From positions 1 through 9,675 of the forward strand of contig JAKADE010000077.1 of NCBI GenBank assembly GCA_021820785.1: a stretch of 9,675 bases of DNA, written 5' to 3'. The translations under genes were made by a program, and so were the position numbers. The DNA comes from Pseudomonadota bacterium (lineage in GTDB: Bacteria > Pseudomonadota > Gammaproteobacteria > Steroidobacterales > Steroidobacteraceae). Below are positions 1 to 9,675 of this stretch, piece after piece (the stretch's first letter is position 1; each line of letters starts with the position of its first letter). The notes under the pieces were generated by a model, which saw nothing but the letters and a program-made list of their open reading frames with translations, was not told the origin of the DNA and made no database searches.

Positions 1-326
1 GGGAAGCGGCCATCGGGGCGCCGCGCGAATTCGAGGTTGTGCGCTGCCTGAATCACCTGCCGCTCGAGCGCCCGGCCATGGCTCGGATGTTCCTCTCAGC
101 CTATCTGCGCGAGCGTCCGCTGCGTGCCGCACGGTTGCCCTGGGCGGTGGATACCGCATGTCTGATGCACGCGCTGAAACACTGGGTGCTGCGGGGCTGG
201 CTCGCCGGTCGCAGCGGCTCCGCAGTGGCGCTGCAGGGCGCAATGCAGATCGTCCCGATGCTCGCCGCTCGGCGCGAGCAGCTTGCCGAGTTCTTTGTGC
301 GCGCGGTCGAGGCGGGAGGAGGCTAG
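1..326 (+). CDS. C-terminal part of a possible APH-fold kinase (5' end outside window)
   Basis: The reading frame is already open at base 3 and ends at the TAG at 324-326, so this is the last ~107 codons of a gene that starts upstream. A GTG at 39 is in frame, but nothing supports it as a true start. The visible part is helical, with Arg/Leu/Ala-rich stretches, an FLSAYLRERPL segment and a later ALKHWVLRGWL segment. That pattern resembles the C-terminal helices of aminoglycoside-phosphotransferase/homoserine-kinase-like proteins, where a conserved aromatic-Leu helix follows the catalytic loop. The catalytic HxDxxxxN and DFD motifs would lie upstream and cannot be checked, so the family call is a guess. 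It ends 5 bases before the radical SAM start, and that gene's ribosome binding site lies inside its last codons, so the two are almost certainly cotranscribed. No membrane segment or signal peptide is visible. Confidence 0.45.
   Translation, partial: EAAIGAPREFEVVRCLNHLPLERPAMARMFLSAYLRERPLRAARLPWAVDTACLMHALKHWVLRGWLAGRSGSAVALQGAMQIVPMLAARREQLAEFFVRAVEAGGG
314..322 (+). promoter_or_regulatory. Strong Shine-Dalgarno site for the radical SAM gene
   Basis: GGGAGGAGG contains AGGAGG at 317-322, placed 9 bases before the ATG at 332. It overlaps the last codons of the upstream gene. It decides the start of the radical SAM gene against the in-frame ATG at 158, which would place 58 extra codons over the upstream gene. 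It is the best ribosome binding site in the window. Confidence 0.8.
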
Positions 327-331
327 CGACG

Positions 332-1177
332 ATGTCCAGTGTGCCAAAGTCCCACGTTTTCCCACCGCCGCTCGATCGACGCTATCGCCTCGAGGACGGT
401 CGCGTGCGGACGCGCTCCCTGGAGGCACACATCGTCGATCACTGCAATCTCACGTGTGCCGAGTGCTGCTCGCTTTCGCCATTACTGCCGCCCTGGTGTG
501 CCGATCCGCAGGAGCTCGAGCGCGATGTGCGGCGTTGCGCGTCGGTGCTGTCGCCGGCGGTCTTCAAACTGGTCGGTGGCGAGCCGCTGCTACATCCGGG
601 CTTGCTCGAGATCCTCCAGCGTGTGCGCCGAACCGCGATCGCGCCGGTGATCTCCCTCACCACCAACGGTTTGCTGCTCGGCGAGATGCCCGACGCATTC
701 TGGTCGGCGCTCGATGCGCTGACGATTTCACGTTACCCGCGCCCGCGGCTATCGGCGCAGCTGATCGCGCAGATCGAGTCCCGGGCCGCGCAATTCCACG
801 TGCGTTTGAACTGGAAGATGCAGGACCAATTCGTGCACATGTCGCGCGATCCTTCAAGCGCCGGGATTGATGAAACGCAGCGGGTGTTCCACGATTGCTG
901 GATTCGCGAACGCTGTCACATGGTTCGCGGCGGGGTGTTCTATACCTGTACGCGTCCGCCGCATCTGCACACGCTGCATCGCGGCCGCATCAATTTCTCA
1001 GGCGACGGGGTCCGGCTGCACGGTGGGCCGGGCTTGCGCGAGGAACTGCTGACGTACCTGCAGCGCGATGAGCCGCTTCAGGCGTGCTTTCATTGCCGTG
1101 GCGGGAACGCTGCGATGCAGCCGCACCGGCTGCTGCGCCGTGCGCAGATCGAAGCACAGCGAGCCGCGTACGAATGA
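332..1177 (+). CDS. Short radical SAM enzyme with cysteine-rich (SPASM/twitch-like) tail
   Basis: This 281-residue protein is a radical S-adenosylmethionine enzyme. Residues 38-46 read CNLTCAECC, which gives the CxxxCxxC cluster motif (Cys38, Cys42, Cys45) plus an extra adjacent Cys46. A GGEP motif for SAM binding sits at 82-85, followed by a typical TTNG strand end at 110-113. The stretch VDHCNL...C..C..LSPL resembles the radical SAM group common in glycan and natural-product clusters (VDHCNLxCxxCxHxSP). The last third has Cys189, Cys195, Cys206, Cys252 and Cys255. This pattern suggests an auxiliary Fe-S cluster of the twitch/SPASM kind, although the protein is shorter than full SPASM maturases. 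The start is set by the AGGAGG at 317-322. Its stop overlaps the next gene's start (ATGA, 1174-1177), so the two should be translated together. The substrate is unknown. It could be a sugar, an amino acid or a peptide. Family call firm, reaction unknown. Confidence 0.88.
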   Translation: MSSVPKSHVFPPPLDRRYRLEDGRVRTRSLEAHIVDHCNLTCAECCSLSPLLPPWCADPQELERDVRRCASVLSPAVFKLVGGEPLLHPGLLEILQRVRRTAIAPVISLTTNGLLLGEMPDAFWSALDALTISRYPRPRLSAQLIAQIESRAAQFHVRLNWKMQDQFVHMSRDPSSAGIDETQRVFHDCWIRERCHMVRGGVFYTCTRPPHLHTLHRGRINFSGDGVRLHGGPGLREELLTYLQRDEPLQACFHCRGGNAAMQPHRLLRRAQIEAQRAAYE

Positions 1178-2214
1178 TCCTCTGGCGACGTGACCCGTTC
1201 GGCTTCACGCGACAATTTTATCAATACGCTGGCAAGGCTTTGGGCGAGAGCCTGCGGGACGTGCTGCGCGAGTGCCCGAAGGAGAACTGGGCGATCGATG
1301 TACAGGCCGTCGCAGGCTACAGAAGCGGCCGCCGACTCCGCGGTCGCACAGTGGTGCGCGGTGTGCACGAGGTTCCGCCGGGTCACGTCCTGCTGCGCTC
1401 GGCTCAGGGTCTGTGCACCCGCGAGGACCCGATCATGCCGGCGCGCGCCCGGCTCGATGAGCTGCTCGGCGCAGCGCTGCGTGTGGCGCTCGAGCGCGGC
1501 CGTCGTGTGGCGCTGGCGCTCAGCGGCGGACTCGACAGCGCATTGCTGCTCGCTCTGCTGCGCGCGCTCGGGGCACATGAGGTGCCCGCGTATATCCTCG
1601 CCGCCGACATCCCGGGCTACGGGGAGCTGCCCGAGGCGCTCGACAGCGCGCAACGCCTGGGCGTGACGCCGATCGTGGTGCGGGTTGACGCGCAAGCCTT
1701 CACCCGCGCGCTGCCGCAGGCGATGGCACACATCCAGGAGCCCCTCTACAACCTGCATCCGGTTGCCAAGCTGCTGCTCGCTCAGGCGATGCGCCGCGAT
1801 GGCATCGAGTGGGCGATCAGCGGGGACGGTGCCGATCAGGTGCTCGGCCGAGACCGCTCGGCCGACTACCTGCCACTCGCCCGCGTGCTCTTCAGCGCTG
1901 CCGGAGTGACTCTGCACGCGCCGTTTCTCGATTCGGCCGTGGTCGCACACCTGCTCAGCTACCCGCCTGATGCCGACAAGCGATGTCTGCGGGAGCTGGC
2001 CGCCCGCTACGGCGTGCCGTCGCGTCTGGTGGCCGGCCCGAAGCGCCGGACGATGACGCCGCCGCTGCCGCTCGGTGGTCTGCTCGATGGAGAGCGCATC
2101 GGTGCGCTCGCACAGCGCTTGGGGGAGACGCCTCCGGCGCTCACTGACGATGCCGAGCGTGTCCACTGGGCGACGCTGCTGGCCGTGTTGGACGCGCTCG
2201 GAGTCGTAGACTGA
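1174..2214 (+). CDS. Asparagine-synthetase-like amide ligase lacking the glutaminase nucleophile region
   Basis: This 346-residue protein has the C-terminal ATP-pyrophosphatase domain of the AsnB / beta-lactam synthetase / lasso cyclase group: PP-loop SGGLDS at 117-122, EPLYNLHPVAK at 189-199, SGDGAD at 216-221 and APFLD at 249-253. Such domains adenylate a carboxylate and pass it to an amine. The N-terminus starts at MILWRRDPFG, which lines up with about residue 136 of the downstream AsnB (ARDRLGVKPF). Its residues 1-80 match only the last part of the glutamine-amidotransferase domain, ending in VPPGH (PAGH in AsnB). The catalytic Cys2 half is absent. It therefore probably cannot make ammonia from glutamine and would use another amine, intramolecular closure, or ammonia from the next gene product. 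The ATG overlaps the radical SAM stop by 4 bases. Upstream in-frame starts such as 1084 would run over the radical SAM gene and do not restore the missing domain. Confidence 0.88.
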   Translation: MILWRRDPFGFTRQFYQYAGKALGESLRDVLRECPKENWAIDVQAVAGYRSGRRLRGRTVVRGVHEVPPGHVLLRSAQGLCTREDPIMPARARLDELLGAALRVALERGRRVALALSGGLDSALLLALLRALGAHEVPAYILAADIPGYGELPEALDSAQRLGVTPIVVRVDAQAFTRALPQAMAHIQEPLYNLHPVAKLLLAQAMRRDGIEWAISGDGADQVLGRDRSADYLPLARVLFSAAGVTLHAPFLDSAVVAHLLSYPPDADKRCLRELAARYGVPSRLVAGPKRRTMTPPLPLGGLLDGERIGALAQRLGETPPALTDDAERVHWATLLAVLDALGVVD

Positions 2215-3992
2215 TGTGTGGGCTGGCCGGTTTGATTCGGGTTGATGCGGCCGCGAACTCGCGCCGCGCCGCGGTGTACTCGATGCGAGCGCGGCTGAAA
2301 CATCGTGGACCTGACGGCGAGGGACTCTGGAGCGATGCCTGCGCAGTGCTCGGGCACACCCGTCTGGCGTTGCTCGATGCCGCACACGGCGAGCAGCCGC
2401 TCGCGAGTCCCGATGGCCGTTATGTGCTGGTGTACAACGGCGAGATCTACAACCACGCCGAGCTGCGCCGGCTGCTGGCCCCGGGCTGGCCATTTCGCAC
2501 TCGGTGCGATACCGAAGTGGTGCTCGCCGCTTACGCCGCGTGGGGCGAGGAGTGCGTGCAGCGGTTCAATGGCATGTTCGCATTTCTGGTCTGGGACACT
2601 CGGGAGCGGCGTGCTTTCGCGGCGCGCGACCGGCTCGGCGTCAAACCGTTCGTATATCTGCGCCAGGGCGAGGAATTCGTGTTCGCTTCGGAAGCCAAAG
2701 CGATTCTGCCGGCGTTGCATGCGCCGCCGCGCGCCGATCTCGAGGCGGTCACGGAGTATCTGGTCGCACCGTATTTCAGCGGCGTCGCGCAACCCATGTT
2801 CGCCGGCATGTCCTATCTCCCGGCCGGTCACGCGCTGACGTTTCGGGATGGCATCGTGCGCGTCACCCGTTGGGCGCATGAGCCGGAGGATGAGGACTCC
2901 GTGGCGCAACGCGGAAGGATCCCCGAAGTGCTGCGCGGGCATCTTGGCGAGGCGGTGCGGCGCACGCTGCAGGCCGACGTGCCGGTTGGGCTGTTTTTCA
3001 GCGGCGGCCTCGACTCGACGCTCATCGGCGCGTTCGCCCGCGCCGCCGGCGCGCGACCGAAGTGCTTCACGGTGTGCTTCGAGGGGCAAGCGCACTACCC
3101 ATACGAACAGTCCGTGATCGTGACCGCCGATGATCGACCGCACGCCGAGACTGCTGCGGGGCTGCTCGGGCTGGCGCAGGACATCGTCGCGGTGCCGCGT
3201 GCCGGTCTGGCCTCGGACCTGCGACAGCTCGCGATGCATAACGATGCGCTGCCGGCCTGGGAGCAGGAACTTGCGCAACATCATCTGGCGCGGACCGCGG
3301 CGACTCAGTTGAAGGCCGTCATGGTCGGGGACGCCGCCGACGAGACGCATTTCGGCTACCATTTTCTACTCGACGAGCACGCCACTGCCGATCCGATGCA
3401 CGTGCTTGAGCGCCTGACGGGGGACCCGTACCTGCGCGCCGATCTGCTGCACCAGCCGCTCGCGCACTATGGAGCGCACTACCGCGAACTCGCGGCGCGT
3501 GCCGGCCAGCACTGGCGTACGCCGTCGGCGCGCGTGCGCGCAACCCAATGGCTGGTTCGCCACCGCTGGCTGCAACGGCTGCTGCACAACGGTGATATCC
3601 ACAGCATGGCTCATGGCCTGGAGGCGCGGGTGCCATTCGCCGACACCGAGTTGCTGAAGGCGGCGGCGCGCGTGCCTGCCGCACTCGCGCTCAGTGAGGG
3701 GCGTGAGAAGGCCATGCTGCGCGCGGCCGCGCGCGGCCTAGTGCCCGAGTCGATCCGTTGTCGGCGCAAATCGGCGCTACCGAAGGATCAAGGCAACGGA
3801 GAGTGGCTGCGGCGGATCGCCCGCCGGCTGCTCATCGAGCAGCATGAGCGCGTCGCGGGCATCCTCGATGTCCCGCGGCTGCTGCGCCGCTGTGAACATC
3901 CCGCGCCGCTCGATGAGCGCGAGCGCGCGGTGCTGTTTCGCAGCGCTGCGCTGGTCCATTGGGCGCAGCACTACGAAGTCACATTGCCATGA
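2214..3992 (+). CDS. asnB: Glutamine-hydrolysing asparagine synthetase-type amidotransferase (AsnB)
   Basis: This 592-residue, full-length AsnB-type enzyme hydrolyses glutamine in its N-terminal Ntn domain and uses ATP in its C-terminal domain to amidate a carboxylate. The nucleophile Cys2 follows the start Met (MCGLAGLIR). Further landmarks are KHRGPDGEG at 29-37, YNGEIYN at 74-80, FNGMFAF at 118-124, ARDRLGVKPF at 137-146, FASEAKAI at 157-164 and PAGH at 203-206. The synthetase domain has SGGLDS at 263-268, GDAADE at 372-377 (usually GEGADE, followed here by THFGY instead of FGGY), SMAHGLEARVPF at 464-475 and RRKSALP at 517-523. All essential motifs are present, so it should be active. It could be a housekeeping-like asparagine synthetase, but its place in the operon suggests amidation of a pathway intermediate. 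The ATG at 2214 shares one base with the previous stop, and a weak GGAG lies at 2200-2203. Confidence 0.93.
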   Translation: MCGLAGLIRVDAAANSRRAAVYSMRARLKHRGPDGEGLWSDACAVLGHTRLALLDAAHGEQPLASPDGRYVLVYNGEIYNHAELRRLLAPGWPFRTRCDTEVVLAAYAAWGEECVQRFNGMFAFLVWDTRERRAFAARDRLGVKPFVYLRQGEEFVFASEAKAILPALHAPPRADLEAVTEYLVAPYFSGVAQPMFAGMSYLPAGHALTFRDGIVRVTRWAHEPEDEDSVAQRGRIPEVLRGHLGEAVRRTLQADVPVGLFFSGGLDSTLIGAFARAAGARPKCFTVCFEGQAHYPYEQSVIVTADDRPHAETAAGLLGLAQDIVAVPRAGLASDLRQLAMHNDALPAWEQELAQHHLARTAATQLKAVMVGDAADETHFGYHFLLDEHATADPMHVLERLTGDPYLRADLLHQPLAHYGAHYRELAARAGQHWRTPSARVRATQWLVRHRWLQRLLHNGDIHSMAHGLEARVPFADTELLKAAARVPAALALSEGREKAMLRAAARGLVPESIRCRRKSALPKDQGNGEWLRRIARRLLIEQHERVAGILDVPRLLRRCEHPAPLDERERAVLFRSAALVHWAQHYEVTLP

Positions 3993-5194
3993 GACGCGTC
4001 CTGTTCTGTGTGTTGCCCGAGCAAGGCCATCTCAACCCCTGCATTGGACCTGCTCAGCGCCTGCAGGCCCACGGTCTGGAGGTGGCCTTCCATGGCGCGC
4101 AGTCCCTCGGCGCGCAGCTGCGGCGTGCCGGTCCTTTCTTGCAGCTCGGAGCGGCCGCTGTGCCGCGGCACGATGCGCTGCGGCGTGGCGCGCAATTTGC
4201 CGCCAGCGTCCGCGATGCAGCTTGGCTGCGCCGATGGATTCGAGAGCTGCTCATAGACCGTGTGGCCGACGAGGTGCCGGCGCTGCGCGCCGCCATCCGC
4301 CACTGGCGGCCCGACGTCATCGTCATCGATCCGCTGTGCTACGCCGCGGCGATCGCTGCCGAGCGGGAAGGTCATCGCTGGGTGGCGCTGTCGAACTCAC
4401 TGAACCCCGTATTACCCGATGCGCTGGACTCCGAGCTGCTCGCCACCGTACGCGAACTCCTTCCGGCTCGACGTGCGCTGTTCGAGCGATTCGGCGTTGC
4501 GGCGCACTTTCGTGGCTGCGACGTGCTCTCGCCGTACTTGACGATGGTGTTCGCGACTGAGGCGTTGGTCGGACCGCCGCCGGTCGGAGTGACTCTTCTC
4601 GGACCCTCCTTGCCGGCGACGATTCGCGGTGACGAGAGCGAATTTCCGTGGGCGCGGCTCGACGCTGCGCTACCTCTGGTGTACCTGTCCTTCGGCAGTC
4701 AGATTTACCATCAACCCGAATTGTTCGCCAAAGTCACCGCGGCGCTGCGCGACCTGCCGCTGCAACTGGTGCTCTCGGCCGGGGAGCTGGCCGACTCGCT
4801 CACTCGCACGGCGCTCGATACCCGAACGGTGATCGTTCGCTATGCGCCGCAACTGGCGCTGCTGCGCCGCGCACGCCTGTTCATCACGCACGGGGGCGCG
4901 AATTCTGTGATGGAGGCATTGGCCTGTGGCGTACCTCTGCTGATCTCGCCGCTGTGCAACGACCAGTTTCATCAGGCGTATTTCATTGAGCGTGCCGGTG
5001 TGGGTCGGCGCCTGGATCTGCGCGAGGCGTCGTGTCAGGATATCGCCGCTGCTGTGGGGTCGCTGCTGAGCGTCGGGGCGCATCGGGAACGACTCGAAGC
5101 GATCCGGGCCAGCTACCGCCGCGACGGTGCGGACGAGGCTGCGCGGCTGATCAGCGCTCTCGCCGCAGAAAGCCGCCCGGGCAGAGCGTCATGA
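3989..5194 (+). CDS. GT1 family glycosyltransferase (MGT/UGT type, GT-B fold)
   Basis: This 401-residue protein resembles macrolide/flavonoid-type glycosyltransferases of family GT1, which move a sugar from a nucleotide donor to a small-molecule acceptor in the cytoplasm. Near the N-terminus, PEQGHLNP at 10-17 carries the family's catalytic histidine (His14). The C-terminal donor-binding domain has LSFGSQ at 233-238, YAPQLALL at 285-292 and HGGANSVMEALACGVP at 301-316, then SPLCNDQFHQA at 320-330. The last two segments are the sugar-nucleotide signature (HGG...E...GVP...P...DQ). Length is typical. No signal peptide or membrane segment is visible. The ATG overlaps the asnB stop (ATGA, 3989-3992). 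A longer start (TTG at 3959) would add ten codons inside asnB and is less likely. The 3' end overlaps the opposite-strand methyltransferase-family gene by 44 bases. The sugar and acceptor cannot be read from sequence. Confidence 0.9.
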   Translation: MRRVLFCVLPEQGHLNPCIGPAQRLQAHGLEVAFHGAQSLGAQLRRAGPFLQLGAAAVPRHDALRRGAQFAASVRDAAWLRRWIRELLIDRVADEVPALRAAIRHWRPDVIVIDPLCYAAAIAAEREGHRWVALSNSLNPVLPDALDSELLATVRELLPARRALFERFGVAAHFRGCDVLSPYLTMVFATEALVGPPPVGVTLLGPSLPATIRGDESEFPWARLDAALPLVYLSFGSQIYHQPELFAKVTAALRDLPLQLVLSAGELADSLTRTALDTRTVIVRYAPQLALLRRARLFITHGGANSVMEALACGVPLLISPLCNDQFHQAYFIERAGVGRRLDLREASCQDIAAAVGSLLSVGAHRERLEAIRASYRRDGADEAARLISALAAESRPGRAS

Positions 5195-5840
5195 GGACGT
5201 GGTTCTCGATGTCCCGGTCGACGGCAAAGCGTGCATCCTCCCCCAGGAAGGTGGCTACGGCACTCGCGGGACTGTTGCCCGGTCCATACGGCCTGCCAGT
5301 GAACAGCGCTGCCGGCAGGTATTCGATCATGGTGTCCATGACGATGCAGTAGCTTCCCGGGCTCACCAGTCCGGCGTACTGCCTCAGCTCCTCAAGGACA
5401 TGTGCGTGCGTAGGATTGAGATCGAGAATCACCATCACCGGGGCATGAGTACCGAGCTCGGCATGTACCGCACGCAGCACGTCCGGCGCATTGGAGAGAC
5501 GCTCGATCAGCCGCATCCGCCGCGCCAGCGGATGTGTCGCGAGACGTTCGCGCACCGTCTGGCGCAGGTTCGGTTCGATTGCCACCACCTTCCCGTCGGC
5601 GCCGAGCAGCTCCAGCATCGAGGCCGAGAAGACCACGCCGCCGCCGGCGGCGACACCGGTCTGCACGATGCGGGCCGGCTTGTGCTGCCAGATGAGCTCC
5701 TGCAGAGCGAGCATGTCGCCCGGCAGATGAAAGAAGCGCTCGCCGAGCCACCGGTTCTGAAAGAGGTGGCCGAACTCGGCGGCCCGAGTGAGCCACTCGA
5801 CGCTGAGCGCATGCATGCGCGCGTGGGGTTGTTCTGACAT
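5151..5840 (-). CDS. CmcI / rhamnosyl O-methyltransferase family protein (cephalosporin hydroxylase-like)
   Basis: This 229-residue protein fits the family of CmcI (cephamycin biosynthesis) and rhamnosyl O-methyltransferases, SAM-dependent enzymes with a Rossmann fold that often work on natural products or sugars. Features are FQNRWLGERFFHLPGDM at 27-43, the SAM-site strand and glycine loop IVQTGVAAGGG at 58-68, FSASMLELLG at 71-80, acidic end-of-strand VVAIEPN at 85-91, VILDLNPTHAHVL at 137-149, LVSPGSY at 158-164, FLGEDARFAVDR at 198-209 and PGGFLRR at 221-227. In CmcI, as I recall, Mg2+ is held by an Asp and a Glu-Asp pair. Here Asp140 and Asp169 remain, but the Glu is Met168 and the usual DSDH is DLNPTH. 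The metal site may be changed. The ATG at 5840 is chosen as the first ATG, although no clear ribosome binding site precedes it. A TTG at 5855 is possible. It overlaps the glycosyltransferase 3' end and shares start-codon bases with the kinase gene. Confidence 0.88.
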   Translation of the reverse strand: MSEQPHARMHALSVEWLTRAAEFGHLFQNRWLGERFFHLPGDMLALQELIWQHKPARIVQTGVAAGGGVVFSASMLELLGADGKVVAIEPNLRQTVRERLATHPLARRMRLIERLSNAPDVLRAVHAELGTHAPVMVILDLNPTHAHVLEELRQYAGLVSPGSYCIVMDTMIEYLPAALFTGRPYGPGNSPASAVATFLGEDARFAVDRDIENHVLMTLCPGGFLRRER

Positions 5841-6831
5841 GACGGTGTACGCCAATCGGTGGATCCGCGAGTCGATGCTTGTGCCGCTTCTGCAGGCGCA
5901 TTGGGGTCTTCGGCAGGTGCAGATCGAGCCTGAGCGGGCCGGTCATGTCAACAGTAGCTTTCGGGTGAGCTGCAGCGAGGGTCTATTCGTGGTGCGCGCA
6001 TCCTGGCCGGCAAAGTCACGCGCGCAACTGCGCCGCGAGCAGACGGTGCTGCGCGCGCTGGGCGGGGCGCCGTCCTGCCCGGAAGTCCCGCGCCTGCGCT
6101 CCACGGTGCACGGTCACCCAGGGGTGCGAACGGGGCAGGGGTCCTGGCTGCACCTGTTCGAGTGGATTGACGGACGCGCCGAACTCCCCGCCGATGCGCC
6201 GGGCGGAACACGTGCTGCGATGCGCGCCCTGGCCGGGCTGCACGCGGCGCTCGCTGCTTTGCCGGTGCGACGCGCAAGTCCCGTCCGATGGCTGCTGGAG
6301 CGGCACCGGCGCGTGGTGCGGCGCAGTCCGCCGCAGATGCCCGGCGAGATCAATGGTGCCTACGAGAGGATGCTCGAGCGGATCGGGGAGCGGCTCGCGG
6401 ACGTGGCGAGCGCGGTTCCGGGGCCGATGAGTTGGCTGCATGGGGATTTCCATCCCGGTAACGTCCTGTTTGACGGCGTTGAGGTTCGCGGCATCATCGA
6501 TTTCGATGATGTCGGGGCCGGAGCGCAGTTGTTCGAAACGGCCTTCGCGCTCTTCACGTTCTCCCGCTGCACGACAGCAGAGGAACAGTTTGAATTCGAT
6601 GCCTGGCGATGGGAGCAGGGCTTGCGGGCGTACGCTGAGGCAGCCCCTGCCACCGCTGTCGGATGGCTGCGCGCCCGATGCGAGGCGATGGTGTTGCTCT
6701 TCTGTGTCGATCAGGTCCTGATGCATCTCGAGGCGGCGCAGCGCGGTTTATGGATATTGGCGCCAGGCGTCGGATTTCTCGGATGTTGGAATAAATTGCA
6801 GTGTGCGCCGCAGTCTGCCTGGATGGTCTAG
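5839..6831 (+). CDS. APH-fold phosphotransferase (aminoglycoside / homoserine kinase-like)
   Basis: This 330-residue protein carries the diagnostic kinase motifs of the aminoglycoside phosphotransferase superfamily: HVNSSFRV at 36-43 (nucleotide-binding lobe), Brenner-type catalytic loop HGDFHPGN at 201-208 (His201, Asp203, Asn208) and the metal-binding IDFDD at 220-224. The C-terminal part is the usual helical substrate lobe. It should phosphorylate a hydroxyl on a small molecule with ATP or GTP. In this cluster that could be an intermediate, a sugar, or the finished product as self-resistance. The start is uncertain. The ATG at 5839 shares two bases with the opposite-strand start codon and has no good ribosome binding site, and the ATG at 5875 (MLVPLL...) would still leave the whole kinase domain. 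Its stop codon abuts the stop codon of the opposite-strand deacetylase with no base between, which leaves no room for a terminator. Confidence 0.9.
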   Translation: MTVYANRWIRESMLVPLLQAHWGLRQVQIEPERAGHVNSSFRVSCSEGLFVVRASWPAKSRAQLRREQTVLRALGGAPSCPEVPRLRSTVHGHPGVRTGQGSWLHLFEWIDGRAELPADAPGGTRAAMRALAGLHAALAALPVRRASPVRWLLERHRRVVRRSPPQMPGEINGAYERMLERIGERLADVASAVPGPMSWLHGDFHPGNVLFDGVEVRGIIDFDDVGAGAQLFETAFALFTFSRCTTAEEQFEFDAWRWEQGLRAYAEAAPATAVGWLRARCEAMVLLFCVDQVLMHLEAAQRGLWILAPGVGFLGCWNKLQCAPQSAWMV

Positions 6832-7461
6832 TCAGACCTGCAGCAGCAGCCGGACGGCCTGGACGGTTGCGTCGCGCGTCTCGCCGCGCGGCGATCCGTC
6901 GTGCAGGCATAGTGTCGCAGCCTCGCCGCGTGCCCGTTGCTCGACGATGTGGCGGCGCATCGATGTGGCGAGCTGTGCGGCGGGGCGGGTGAGCCAGTCC
7001 TCGAACAGCCCCGTCCATCCGACGTGAGAGCGTCCGAGTTGTCGCAGTGCGCTCAGCCGGCGATCGCCAGGCCTTACGCCGTACGGAAGACGCAGTGGGA
7101 TCGAGTCCGGGGGTCGCAGGTCGGCCGTCCGATATGCGGCCCGGATGAGCCGATCCGTCCGGTGGATTTCATCGATCAGCGCATCGATGCTGAGGGCGCC
7201 GGCCGGTGCGTGCGAGAACGTGTGATTCCCGAGAGTGTGGCCCTCGTGGAGCATGCGGACCGCCACGGCCAGGTCGGTCCGCAGATGGCACCCCAGGGCA
7301 AAGAATGTCGCGGGGCAGCGGGCGGTGGCGAGTGCATCGAGCAACGCTCGGGTCGAGGGACCCGGGCCGTCGTCGAACGTCAATTGCATGGCGAGCGGAT
7401 GGATAGGACATGGGCGGTCGGCTTGGACCGGAAGACGCGCAGCGGTGCGGGTATCGTGCAT
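6832..7461 (-). CDS. Polysaccharide deacetylase (CE4 / NodB homology domain)
   Basis: This 209-residue protein is essentially a bare NodB-type domain, which removes N-acetyl (or other acyl) groups from sugars by a metal-dependent mechanism. All five CE4 motifs are visible: LTFDDGPGPS at 27-36 (Asp30, metal ligand Asp31), HTLGNHTFSH at 75-84 (metal ligands His80 and His84), RLPYG at 124-128, the FEDW segment at 153-156 and LCLHDG at 184-189. There is no signal peptide or membrane anchor, so it probably acts in the cytoplasm on a small glycoside and not on cell wall. The start at 7461 is supported by AGGA at 7467-7470, 5 bases upstream. An in-frame ATG at 7467 has no such site. The frame stays open for 201 further codons upstream, but part of that is antisense to an ATPase-gene remnant, so the extension is not real. 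Deacetylation after transfer of an N-acetylhexosamine by the GT1 enzyme is a reasonable inference. Confidence 0.92.
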   Translation of the reverse strand: MHDTRTAARLPVQADRPCPIHPLAMQLTFDDGPGPSTRALLDALATARCPATFFALGCHLRTDLAVAVRMLHEGHTLGNHTFSHAPAGALSIDALIDEIHRTDRLIRAAYRTADLRPPDSIPLRLPYGVRPGDRRLSALRQLGRSHVGWTGLFEDWLTRPAAQLATSMRRHIVEQRARGEAATLCLHDGSPRGETRDATVQAVRLLLQV

Positions 7462-7464
7462 GGT

Positions 7465-7562
7465 CATCCTAAGGTGAAATGTACACTGCTCGCGTGCGGC
7501 GACGGCATCGCAGCCGAAGAAGTCTTCAGCCGACCGCTCGCCCAAGGGCTGGCACGCCGACG
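7465..7562 (+). pseudogene. 3'-end remnant of a DUF4143-type ATPase gene
   Basis: Bases 7471-7555 align without gaps to 9552-9636, the last 28 codons of the intact ATPase gene, with 64 of 85 bases identical by hand count. The translation runs KVKCTLLACGDGIAAEE... against KVKRTLLVGGDGIAVEE..., with 18 of 28 residues identical. The frame is unbroken across the aligned part, but the TGA stop of the intact gene (9639-9641) is CGA here (7558-7560), so the frame reads through to 7704. Upstream the similarity ends at about 7465, where the opposite-strand deacetylase start lies. No other part of this ATPase copy is visible to the left in the window. Confidence 0.82.
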
Positions 7563-8005
7563 GGCGAAGAGTTCCAAGCGAGCGCCACTGGGCGATGTTC
7601 CGGACTTTCTTGAGGCTCTGCGCAATGCTTTGCACCAGACGGTGTGCCCCCCCAGTGCGTCGCACGCCACCTCGTTCGACGAATCGCAACAACAGGGTGA
7701 GTGACCGCTCAGCTACCAGGCTAGCGCCCGGATAACCGATCAGGCGGTGGATAGAACTGGTTATTCGCGGCCAGAAGCATTGGTATTCCGGATGACGATG
7801 GACACCCATCGACAGCCCTGAACGCGATCCGGCGTTCAGCACCTGCTCGCGGCGGAAGAGCGTATCTATTAGATTTATAAGGTTATTCCGAAGCTCCGCG
7901 CCACGGTAGCTACGGGGATTGCTACAGCGCCTTCCAAGGCGGTCGCGCTCCTGGCGGGCGCCCTGGAACTGCGCAGCGTACTGCGAAGCGCCATGGCCGC
8001 GATGA
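7563..8005. other. Intergenic stretch with no supported gene
   Basis: I see no supported gene in this ~440-base stretch. The minus strand is open across it in the deacetylase frame, but the predicted residues are Arg/Leu/Ser-rich, match no family I know, and the frame is not needed for the deacetylase. A comparatively AT-rich patch lies at about 7862-7890 (tctattagatttataaggtt). A 6-base inverted pair ataacc/ggttat (7732-7737 and 7759-7764) is too weak to call a terminator. The stretch probably consists of decayed coding or mobile DNA. Confidence 0.5.
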
Positions 8006-8107
8006 GTTCGCAGTATGGTGCGCAGGCCAGATGGTTGAGTAAAAATACTCAATAATGTGAGCAAAAAGCAAAACCGAGTTCCGACGCCCTCAGGCCGCTA
8101 CCCTGAC
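8006..8107 (+). pseudogene. 5'-end and promoter remnant of the DUF4143-type ATPase gene
   Basis: This block matches 8385-8482, which is the promoter region and first ~15 codons of the intact ATPase gene. It has the same 29-base upstream spacing (18 of 29 identical), the same 18-base palindrome (8035-8052) and the same 4-base gap to a GTG (8057). It then reads gtgagcaaaa, followed by a block ending in ccgagttccgacg as in the intact gene. One extra base after gtgagcaaaa (agcaaaaccgag against tacaggccgag) shifts the frame, and similarity fades after about 8107. The region aligned with the intact gene's TTGCAC -35 box is GTGCGC here, so the promoter also looks damaged. Confidence 0.8.
8035..8052. 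repeat. 18-base perfect palindromic element, copy 1
   Basis: TTGAGTAAAAATACTCAA consists of 7-base arms TTGAGTA/TACTCAA around AAAA. It sits 4 bases before the GTG of the broken 5' ATPase remnant. It is identical in all 18 bases to the element before the intact gene, although the flanking sequence has diverged, which suggests it was under selection. Confidence 0.9.
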
Positions 8108-8384
8108 CACATCGAGCCGATTTCCACAGGGCGTCGCCGATTCTCGCCTGGCCTGAACGGGATGGCGGGCGAGCACAACGCGGTCGCGGCAGCCGCACGA
8201 GTATGGCGGACGCGGGTCAGGGGTCGATATTGAGCAAAGAAAGCCAATCCCGGAGAAGCCGTTTCGCCGCAGAGTGGCCGAAAAGTCAAGCAAAACATAG
8301 GCTTTCGCCTTTGCTAAACAGAGGCTTTGGCCGGGATTCTAGTCAAGGTTTCTAGCAAAGGGCTCAGTCGCGAGGATTGGGTGA
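8108..8384. other. Intergenic spacer between ATPase-gene remnant and intact copy
   Basis: No plausible gene is visible. Two overlapping minus-strand frames of 66-67 codons (8090-8298) have no clear ribosome binding site and no recognisable family. An imperfect inverted repeat joins aatcccggagaagcc (8246-8260) and ggctttggccgggatt (8323-8338). A 9-base inverted pair cctttgcta/tagcaaagg lies at 8308-8316 and 8353-8361. These could be scars of a small mobile element, but no target duplication could be identified. Confidence 0.4.
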
Positions 8385-8435: not shown

Positions 8436-9641
8436 GTGAGCAAAATACAGGCCGAGTTCCGACGTCCACAAGCCGCTGTGCTGGCCGAGCGGTTGGCCGA
8501 GCCGCGCCGCTTCCTGCACGTCGTCGCAGGCCCCCGCCAGGTCGGCAAGTCGACCCTGGTCCAGCAGGTCACAGATGAGCTGAGCCTGCCTGTCCGCTAC
8601 GCCAGTGCCGACGAGCCGACGCTCCGAGGTGTGGACTGGATCAGTCAGCAATGGGAGGCGGCGCGGCTCGAGGCATCGGGCGAAGCCGGTGCCGTGCTCG
8701 TGCTCGATGAGATCCAGAAGATTCCGTCCTGGTCCGAGACGGTCAAGCGGCTCTGGGACGAAGACACGCGTAAGAAGCGACCGCTCAAGGTCGTACTGCT
8801 CGGATCAGCCCCGCTGCTGATTACCCAGGGACTGACTGAGAGCCTCGCTGGCCGGTTCGAGACGCTGCGCCTACCGCACTGGTCCTACGCCGAGATGCGC
8901 GAGGCCTTCGGTTTCACGCTCGAGGAATACCTCTACTTTGGCGGATATCCCGGTGCGGCGCCGCTCATCCGGGATCCCCTCCGCTGGTCCCGCTACATCG
9001 CGGATAGTCTCATCGAGACTTCCATTGCGCGCGACGTGCTGCTGCTCACCCGTGTGGACAAGCCGGCGTTGCTGCGCCGCTTGTTCGAGCTGGCGTGCCG
9101 TTATTCCGGACAGATCCTCTCGTACACGAAGATGCTGGGACAGCTGCAGGACGTGGGTAATACGACGACGCTGGCACACTACCTCGATCTGCTGACCGGC
9201 GCGGGCATGGTCTGTGGCCTGCAGAAGTACGCCGGTGATGCGGCGCGCAGCCGCGGGTCGAGCCCGAAGCTGCAGGTGCTGAATACCGCACTGATGACTG
9301 TGACTGCCGCGGTCAGCCCGCAAGAGGCGCGATCGGATCGTGAATTTCGCGGGCGGCTCATCGAGTCAGCGGTCGGCGCGCATCTGGCAAATGCCGCGGC
9401 TGCCGGTGAGTGCGAGGTTTTCTACTGGCGCGAGCGGGGTCAGGAAGTCGACTTCGTCGCAAAGGCCCGCTCCACGCTGATCGCCATTGAAGTGAAGAGC
9501 GGCCGAGCGCCGCAGGCCCATCCCGGGACGGCGGCCTTTGCGGCGGCATTCAAGGTGAAACGTACATTGCTTGTCGGCGGCGATGGCATCGCGGTCGAGG
9601 AATTCCTGAACCGGCCCGTTGCGCATTGGCTGGCACACTGA
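8436..9641 (+). CDS. AAA-type ATPase with C-terminal DUF4143 domain
   Basis: This 401-residue protein has the layout of the widespread ATPase/DUF4143 family. The N-terminal P-loop is at 32-40 (GPRQVGKST, Walker A). The Walker B strand VLVLDEIQKI lies roughly at residues 88-97, followed by the sensor strand KVVLLGSAPLL. A central YLYFGGYPGA segment marks the domain junction, and the C-terminal region holds EVFYWRERGQEVDF and LIAIEVKSG. The VDF...IEVK pattern resembles the D/ExK core of PD-(D/E)xK nucleases, as is often noted for this family, although activity is not established. The biological role is unknown. These genes are typical of accessory regions and often occur in several copies. The GTG start is chosen because FRRPQAAVL leads directly into the ATPase domain and because the broken copy has the same palindrome-GTG layout. 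There is no ribosome binding site. It is probably not part of the upstream biosynthetic cluster. Confidence 0.92.
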   Translation: MSKIQAEFRRPQAAVLAERLAEPRRFLHVVAGPRQVGKSTLVQQVTDELSLPVRYASADEPTLRGVDWISQQWEAARLEASGEAGAVLVLDEIQKIPSWSETVKRLWDEDTRKKRPLKVVLLGSAPLLITQGLTESLAGRFETLRLPHWSYAEMREAFGFTLEEYLYFGGYPGAAPLIRDPLRWSRYIADSLIETSIARDVLLLTRVDKPALLRRLFELACRYSGQILSYTKMLGQLQDVGNTTTLAHYLDLLTGAGMVCGLQKYAGDAARSRGSSPKLQVLNTALMTVTAAVSPQEARSDREFRGRLIESAVGAHLANAAAAGECEVFYWRERGQEVDFVAKARSTLIAIEVKSGRAPQAHPGTAAFAAAFKVKRTLLVGGDGIAVEEFLNRPVAHWLAH

Positions 9642-9675
9642 CGTTGCAGGAACGAACTGGCGCGCCGACCGGCGA

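What the first reader, a model, noticed from the sequence alone, without database searches (positions are those of the whole stretch)
1..7461. Tailoring-enzyme cluster without a visible core synthase
Seen: radical SAM enzyme, two adjacent AsnB-type ligases, GT1 glycosyltransferase, CmcI-family protein, one clear and one possible APH-fold kinase, and a NodB-type deacetylase, all packed without spacers. Known: each family recurs in antibiotic or glycoconjugate pathways. Moenomycin biosynthesis is a precedent for a pair of AsnB-type enzymes working beside glycosyltransferases. Inference: this set, with no NRPS/PKS/terpene core or precursor-peptide gene visible, matches no pathway I can name and may make an undescribed amide-linked glycoside or aminosugar compound.
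Basis: partly seen in the sequence, partly recalled or inferred. Interest (0 to 1): 0.72.

Follow-up and report, generated by a model that had tools for sequence, protein, structure and literature searches.

The report
Core-less gene cassette for aminosugar compound
A compact set of eight or nine genes, found in scattered and only distantly related bacteria, looks like the recipe for a small sugar-based compound with some of the chemistry of aminoglycoside antibiotics, but it has none of the usual core genes by which such recipes are found.

The parts
3..326 (+). 3' end of APH1, an APH-fold kinase (333 aa; starts 675 bases left of the window, L002 10061-11062)
   Evidence: PF01636 8.8e-09 on the whole protein; H205, D207, N212, D225 identical in 27 of 27 loci with a match
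332..1177 (+). Twitch-type radical SAM enzyme, SpeY/HygY clan (probable sugar epimerase)
1174..2214 (+). Short AsnB-type amide synthetase without glutaminase domain
2214..3992 (+). Full-length AsnB-type glutamine amidotransferase (optional in the cluster)
   Evidence: PF13537 3.1e-44 and PF00733 9.2e-56; C2 kept in 9 of 9 relatives; absent from 26 of 28 proteobacterial loci
3989..5194 (+). GT1 glycosyltransferase of the small-molecule (MGT) kind
   Evidence: PF00201 4.2e-20; TIGR01426 MGT 1.5e-40, below its cut-off; best PDB relatives Kcn28, oleandomycin glycosyltransferases, YjiC, CalG enzymes
5151..5840 (-). CmcI/rhamnosyl O-methyltransferase family protein; its 3' end overlaps GT1 by 44 bases
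   Evidence: PF04989 1.5e-57; motif residues checked are identical in 27 of 27; overlap of 44 bases in 26 of 27 loci, 47 in the other
5839..6831 (+). APH2, APH-fold kinase; start codon overlaps that of CmcI head to head
   Evidence: PF01636 5.5e-26; H201, D203, N208, D221 identical in 27 of 27 loci with a match
6832..7461 (-). NodB-type (CE4) N-deacetylase, no obvious signal peptide (by eye)
   Evidence: PF01522 8.9e-21; NodB model TIGR04243 7.4e-21, below its cut-off; FDDGP, N80, H81, H85, R125, P127, Y128, H188, D189 identical in 27 of 27, S84 varies (S 20, T 6, G 1)

Best explanation
This is a horizontally spread biosynthetic cassette (8 genes, 9 with the full AsnB) for a small, cytoplasm-made aminosugar glycoside. 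Proposed steps: (1) GT1 transfers GlcNAc from UDP-GlcNAc to a small acceptor taken from primary metabolism (inferred). (2) NodB removes the acetyl group to expose the amine; in the second architecture a PIG-L enzyme does the same (families shown, substrate inferred). (3) The SpeY/HygY-type radical SAM enzyme abstracts a hydrogen from a sugar carbinol and Cys195 returns one from the other face, giving an epimer (fold and cysteine shown, reaction inferred). (4) The short AsnB adenylates a carboxylate and joins it to an amine, either the freed sugar amine or ammonia; where present, the full AsnB makes a carboxamide from glutamine (fold and motifs shown, substrates inferred). (5) The FkbM-like and CmcI enzymes methylate; the two APH kinases phosphorylate an intermediate or the product, the latter as self-protection (inferred).
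Against: No acceptor-making gene was seen. In 6 host genomes there are 1 (five genomes) or 2 (Brevifollis) DHQ-synthase domains, so no sign of an extra 2-deoxy-scyllo-inosose synthase in the five (that the single copy is AroB is assumed). No exporter or regulator is shared with the set beyond 12 Burkholderia loci; the flanking ORFs were not annotated. Epimerase versus dehydrogenase rests on one cysteine; a second invariant cysteine (C46) next to the SAM motif has no counterpart in SpeY or the HygY-like protein and is unexplained. Paraliomyxa L043 has short AsnB, AsnB, GT1 and PIG-L but no rSAM even at E < 1, so the rSAM step is not universal. The donor sugar of GT1 was not tested. NodB, AsnB and FkbM also fit polysaccharide loci.
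Confidence: 0.55

Rival explanations
1. Envelope glycan locus: the enzymes decorate a lipid-linked or surface polysaccharide (methylation, deacetylation, uronamide formation).
For: Asparagine synthases (wbpS), NodB-type deacetylases and FkbM proteins do occur in polysaccharide loci, for example in Rubrivivax (PMC3684757, passages seen). A Bordetella homologue of the short AsnB is annotated as an O-antigen enzyme (P0079).
Against: The Rubrivivax loci hold wzx, wzy and many glycosyltransferases; here nothing outside the eight genes is shared beyond Burkholderia neighbours (flanks not annotated gene by gene). GT1 groups with small-molecule enzymes and the rSAM with aminoglycoside enzymes.
Confidence: 0.18
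2. Mycothiol-like cofactor or metallophore: glycosylate, deacetylate, ligate an amino acid to the amine, for the cell's own redox or metal use.
For: GT, deacetylase and amide ligase recur together; the type-B deacetylase also hits BshB1 weakly (4.9e-06, far below cut-off); no shared exporter was seen (not annotated).
Against: Sporadic distribution: 13 of 200 Burkholderiaceae, rSAM in 2 of 369 genomes of the class; type-specific kinases and methyltransferases are unlike a core cofactor (inference).
Confidence: 0.12
3. RiPP or other peptide pathway with a short precursor that was missed; the short AsnB is a macrolactam-type cyclase.
For: AsnB-fold enzymes close lasso peptides (recalled); a weak match to the macrolactam cyclase model NF033561 (6.5e-12, below cut-off).
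Against: Spacers between the genes are mostly 0 to 46 bases. In 700 bases on either side of 13 upstream and 12 downstream stretches, shared ORFs occur only within close pairs of loci or at the FkbM start itself. The nearest rSAM relatives act on sugars, not peptides.
Confidence: 0.04
4. Drug-inactivation cassette: kinases, GT1, methyltransferase and deacetylase modify foreign antibiotics.
For: APH and macrolide-GT models are hit, all below curated cut-offs.
Against: A radical SAM enzyme and an AsnB-type synthetase have no obvious place in detoxification (inference), yet the rSAM goes with the short AsnB in 33 of 35 loci, one of the two exceptions being cut by a contig end.
Confidence: 0.05

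Closest known systems
SpeY and HygY-like twitch radical SAM enzymes (spectinomycin, hygromycin B; compound names recalled)
   Different: Has the cysteine that SpeY lacks and the HygY-like protein has, plus a further invariant Cys46; sits in Gram-negative clusters without a visible aminocyclitol gene
2-deoxystreptamine aminoglycoside clusters
   Same: Glycosyltransferase, deacetylase, radical SAM sugar enzyme and APH kinases in one cluster
   Different: No sign of inosose synthase in five of six hosts; GT1 of the MGT kind; AsnB-type amide synthetase; found in Proteobacteria, Verrucomicrobiota, Myxococcota and others
Teicoplanin Orf2 and Dbv21 GlcNAc-pseudoaglycone deacetylases
   Same: The type-B PIG-L protein hits both (2.5e-07); GT1 followed by GlcNAc deacetylase is the same logic (recalled)
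   Different: No glycopeptide NRPS; proteobacterial clusters use NodB instead
Moenomycin AsnB pair (MoeF5/MoeH5; recalled)
   Same: Two AsnB-type enzymes beside a glycosyltransferase in the window
   Different: Here one lacks the glutaminase domain and the other is missing from most relatives

Membership tests
SpeY/HygY twitch radical SAM enzymes | CX3CX2C SAM motif, four auxiliary-cluster cysteines and SpeY fold | tested here: met
SpeY/HygY twitch radical SAM enzymes | Epimerase-type hydrogen-donor cysteine (HygY Cys183; the number is recalled) | tested here: met
   Cys195 aligns with Cys183 of the Streptomyces SAT1 homologue; invariant in 36 of 36
SpeY/HygY twitch radical SAM enzymes | Acts on an aminoglycoside sugar | not testable with these tools
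   Needs an enzyme assay
2-deoxystreptamine aminoglycoside cluster | 2-deoxy-scyllo-inosose synthase in the producer | tested here: not met
   One DHQ-synthase domain each in 5 of 6 host genomes, not at the cluster; two in the sixth, Brevifollis, which stays open. The window's own genome is 87% complete. Flanks were not scanned for other aminocyclitol genes
AsnB-type amide synthetases (short AsnB) | PP-loop SGGxDS, GDGxDQ motif, Lys and Arg of KxxxR | tested here: met
   33 to 35 of 35 at the positions checked
Glutamine-dependent asparagine synthetase (short AsnB) | N-terminal glutaminase domain with Cys2 | tested here: not met
   Protein begins at the equivalent of residue ~132 of E. coli AsnB; no GATase Pfam hit
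Beta-lactam/carbapenam synthetase (short AsnB) | Catalytic Tyr in the GxG motif (recalled) | tested here: not met
   Asp218 in 35 of 35
RiPP cluster | Conserved short precursor gene | tested here: not met
   (13 upstream and 12 downstream stretches, type A only)
Moenomycin cluster | Two AsnB-type enzymes retained together | tested here: not met
   Full AsnB absent from 26 of 28 type-A loci

The most novel reading that the evidence does not exclude
A separate class of sugar-amide natural products, aminoglycoside-like in its chemistry but built on a primary-metabolite acceptor by a glutaminase-free AsnB synthetase and a radical SAM epimerase, spread as a minimal cassette through Burkholderia, Bordetella, Luteibacter, Steroidobacteraceae, Myxococcota and Verrucomicrobiota (with single loci in Planctomycetota and Acidobacteriota), and likely to be missed by miners that look for core synthases.
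Probability: 0.35. Interest if true: 0.78.

Novelty: new variant of a known kind. Interest (0 to 1): 0.62.

Why it matters
If right, a family of natural-product clusters without a core gene has gone unnoticed in much-sequenced genera such as Burkholderia. The two architectures give a way to work out the chemistry by comparison: what both keep (short AsnB, GT1, a deacetylase, nearly always the rSAM) should make the scaffold. It would also add a new setting for twitch radical SAM epimerases outside actinomycete aminoglycosides, in a cassette small enough for a laboratory host.

Tried and rejected
Considered and rejected: viperin (pVip models hit only residues 31-133, 7.6e-10; SpeY is far better); MoaA (best NCBIfam hit 1.5e-11, far below cut-off); beta-lactam synthetase (no Tyr); lasso/RiPP; 2-DOS aminoglycoside; RNA structure upstream of FkbM (z -0.03). 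Led nowhere: PDB sequence searches for FkbM and the two kinases; the plasmid search gave one distant hit, useful for the rSAM only; the PDB-code search of papers.

Results against or short of the reading: L043 has no rSAM and no GT2 even at E < 1, and L045 no fam130 or PIG-L. APH2 aligned only in part in L030 and L033. The other rSAM of the class sample is a lone gene. The flank test used 13 of 29 type-A loci upstream and 12 downstream. It did find shared flanks between Achromobacter L025 and Bordetella L033 (85-88% identical DNA), within Bordetella (L030-L032) and within Burkholderia (L015-L026), and a short match of L024 and L035 at the FkbM start; nothing was common to more than such pairs except the FkbM start itself. 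The tree of rSAM, short AsnB and GT1 groups the 28 type-A loci with the window (support 0.999) but leaves the window-Luteibacter pairing unresolved (0.10). Not done: Verrucomicrobiota sample, MIBiG comparison (no tool), Pfam annotation of all flanking genes.
Full report
What is in the window. Gene calls and families are as the finding says. The window lies on a 19.3-kb contig of an uncultured gammaproteobacterium, placed from contig base 10737 on. It is probably a member of the Steroidobacteraceae: the homologues of the neighbouring DUF1614 protein that bear an organism name among the 120 listed read Steroidobacteraceae or Gammaproteobacteria, the closest of them 84% identical. The contig adds on the left an FkbM-like protein (L002 9311-10060) and the missing part of APH1 (10061-11062); beyond them lie unrelated genes. 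A second genome of the same genus carries the end of the short AsnB, AsnB, GT1 and CmcI in the same order at 95-99% identity. Among 60 genomes searched, own included, only these two have a family-level short AsnB; the next best match is 3e-18.

The set is a unit. A 27-member alignment of the short AsnB was used to scan 84,980 species genomes: 56 loci, of which 35 (L013-L047) are relatives of the short enzyme and 21 (L048-L068) are other AsnB genes. Since loci were fetched by the short AsnB, its presence is by construction; that of the others is not. Type A, 28 loci, all Proteobacteria (Burkholderia, Paraburkholderia, Trinickia, Chitinasiproducens, Bordetella, Achromobacter, Verticiella, Luteibacter): FkbM, APH1, rSAM, short AsnB, GT1, CmcI(-), APH2, NodB(-). 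All eight are found in 26 of 28; L029 and L040 run off their contigs. Type B, 7 loci (Verrucomicrobiota 2, Myxococcota or Deltaproteobacteria 3, Planctomycetota 1, Acidobacteriota 1): rSAM, short AsnB, AsnB, GT1, GT2, an unnamed family, PIG-L deacetylase. AsnB and GT1 are in 7 of 7; rSAM, GT2, the unnamed family and PIG-L in 6 of 7 each. L043 lacks rSAM and GT2 even at E < 1. A further genome of the phylum of Paraliomyxa, found by a separate search, has the full type-B order. None of the 21 control loci has any of the ten partner families at E 1e-8. Outside the set, no ORF family is shared by more than 12 of 35 loci, all of those Burkholderia.

Place of the window. The full AsnB lies between the short AsnB and GT1 in the window and in type B, and follows the short AsnB in Luteibacter L029, whose contig ends there. 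It is missing from the other type-A loci except Trinickia L035, where it lies beyond NodB; in one Burkholderia genome a 66%-identical copy sits on another replicon, away from the cluster. So the window keeps the arrangement shared by both types; loss in the rest is the simplest reading. In 9 of 11 other type-A hosts no AsnB better than about 45% identity was found. The joint tree puts the window and L029 outside the betaproteobacterial loci, without resolving their pairing.

Gene packing. GT1 and CmcI overlap tail to tail by exactly 44 bases in 26 of 27 type-A loci that hold both, and by 47 in the other; in the window 5151-5194 is also 44. The starts of CmcI and APH2 overlap head to head in 23 of 27 (estimated from aligned starts); L025 and L037 have small gaps, and L030 and L033 could not be measured. 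Spacers inside the set are mostly 0 to 46 bases. Flanks of 700 bases (13 upstream, 12 downstream stretches) share ORFs only within close pairs of loci or at the FkbM start.

Short AsnB. The model (pLDDT 93.5) aligns with AsnB, beta-lactam and carbapenam synthetases from residue 114-136 of those chains on. The ATP-binding motif and the Lys/Arg positions checked are kept; the glutaminase domain is gone, and Asp218 stands where beta-lactam synthetases have Tyr (recalled). It should still activate a carboxylate and form an amide, with an amine or free ammonia as nucleophile (inference).

Deacetylase slot. Type A has NodB, type B has PIG-L: unrelated folds with the same kind of reaction (established knowledge). 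The PIG-L protein's best PDB relatives are 6iiy ('deacetylase', 7.3e-08), Dbv21 and the teicoplanin pseudoaglycone deacetylase (2.5e-07 each), of which the last two deacetylate a GlcNAc put on by a GT1 (recalled). This is the main hint that GT1 transfers GlcNAc. The donor was not tested.

Distribution. Short AsnB family: 13 of 200 genomes of the family of Burkholderia sp. MS389, 2 of 188 of the phylum of Paraliomyxa. rSAM family at E 1e-50: 2 of 369 genomes of the window's class, one being the window's own and the other a lone gene. Sporadic presence in mostly different flanks speaks for horizontal spread.

Literature. Ten searches of open-access full texts were made: five aimed at the gene set and five at the radical SAM relatives or PDB codes. 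None listed a paper that I could recognise as describing this set; held no paper. The one paper (PMC3684757, passages) describes Rubrivivax polysaccharide loci with wbpS-type asparagine synthases and deacetylases but also wzx, wzy and many glycosyltransferases; it is counted for the envelope rival. PMC5461906 (aminoglycoside review, passages) gave background. Subscription papers and MIBiG were out of reach, so 'undescribed' is only as good as that.

Verdict. Observation confirmed; interpretation upheld in outline and sharpened. Shown: families, synteny, fold matches, residue conservation, no visible core gene. Inferred: substrates, order of steps, product, role of the kinases.

Noticed in passing
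window 7471-7562, 8003-8108 and 8436-9641: The DUF4143/AAA_14 gene at 8436-9641 (PADLOC PDC-S01, 2.8e-178) has a tail remnant at 7471-7562 (64% aa identity over 28) and a start remnant within 8003-8108 (67% over 15), both on the + strand: probably decayed tandem copies, one next to the NodB start.
   Followed up: partly
window 5151-5194 and 5839-5840: Alternating-strand genes with a 44-base tail-to-tail overlap kept in 26 of 27 loci and head-to-head overlapping starts leave no room for a CmcI promoter outside APH2; possibly a non-contiguous operon.
   Followed up: partly
window 467-469 (Cys46 of the rSAM): A cysteine directly after CX3CX2C is invariant in 36 of 36 family members but is Ala in SpeY and Ser in the HygY-like protein.
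   Followed up: no
L042 14869-15672 and relatives in L041, L043, L044, L046, L047, L086: A family of about 265 aa, without a Pfam match in L042 and L044 or an NCBIfam match there, precedes PIG-L in type-B clusters.
   Followed up: no
window 8601-9675: The last ~1.07 kb of the window is beyond the end of the held contig, which is 99.5% identical to the rest: window and held assembly are not the same sequence.
   Followed up: no
G104 C1:1790883-1791608 (L080, L081): A more distant relative of the rSAM (E 1e-67) in another gammaproteobacterial genome stands without any of the cassette's other genes within the 16 kb read.
   Followed up: partly
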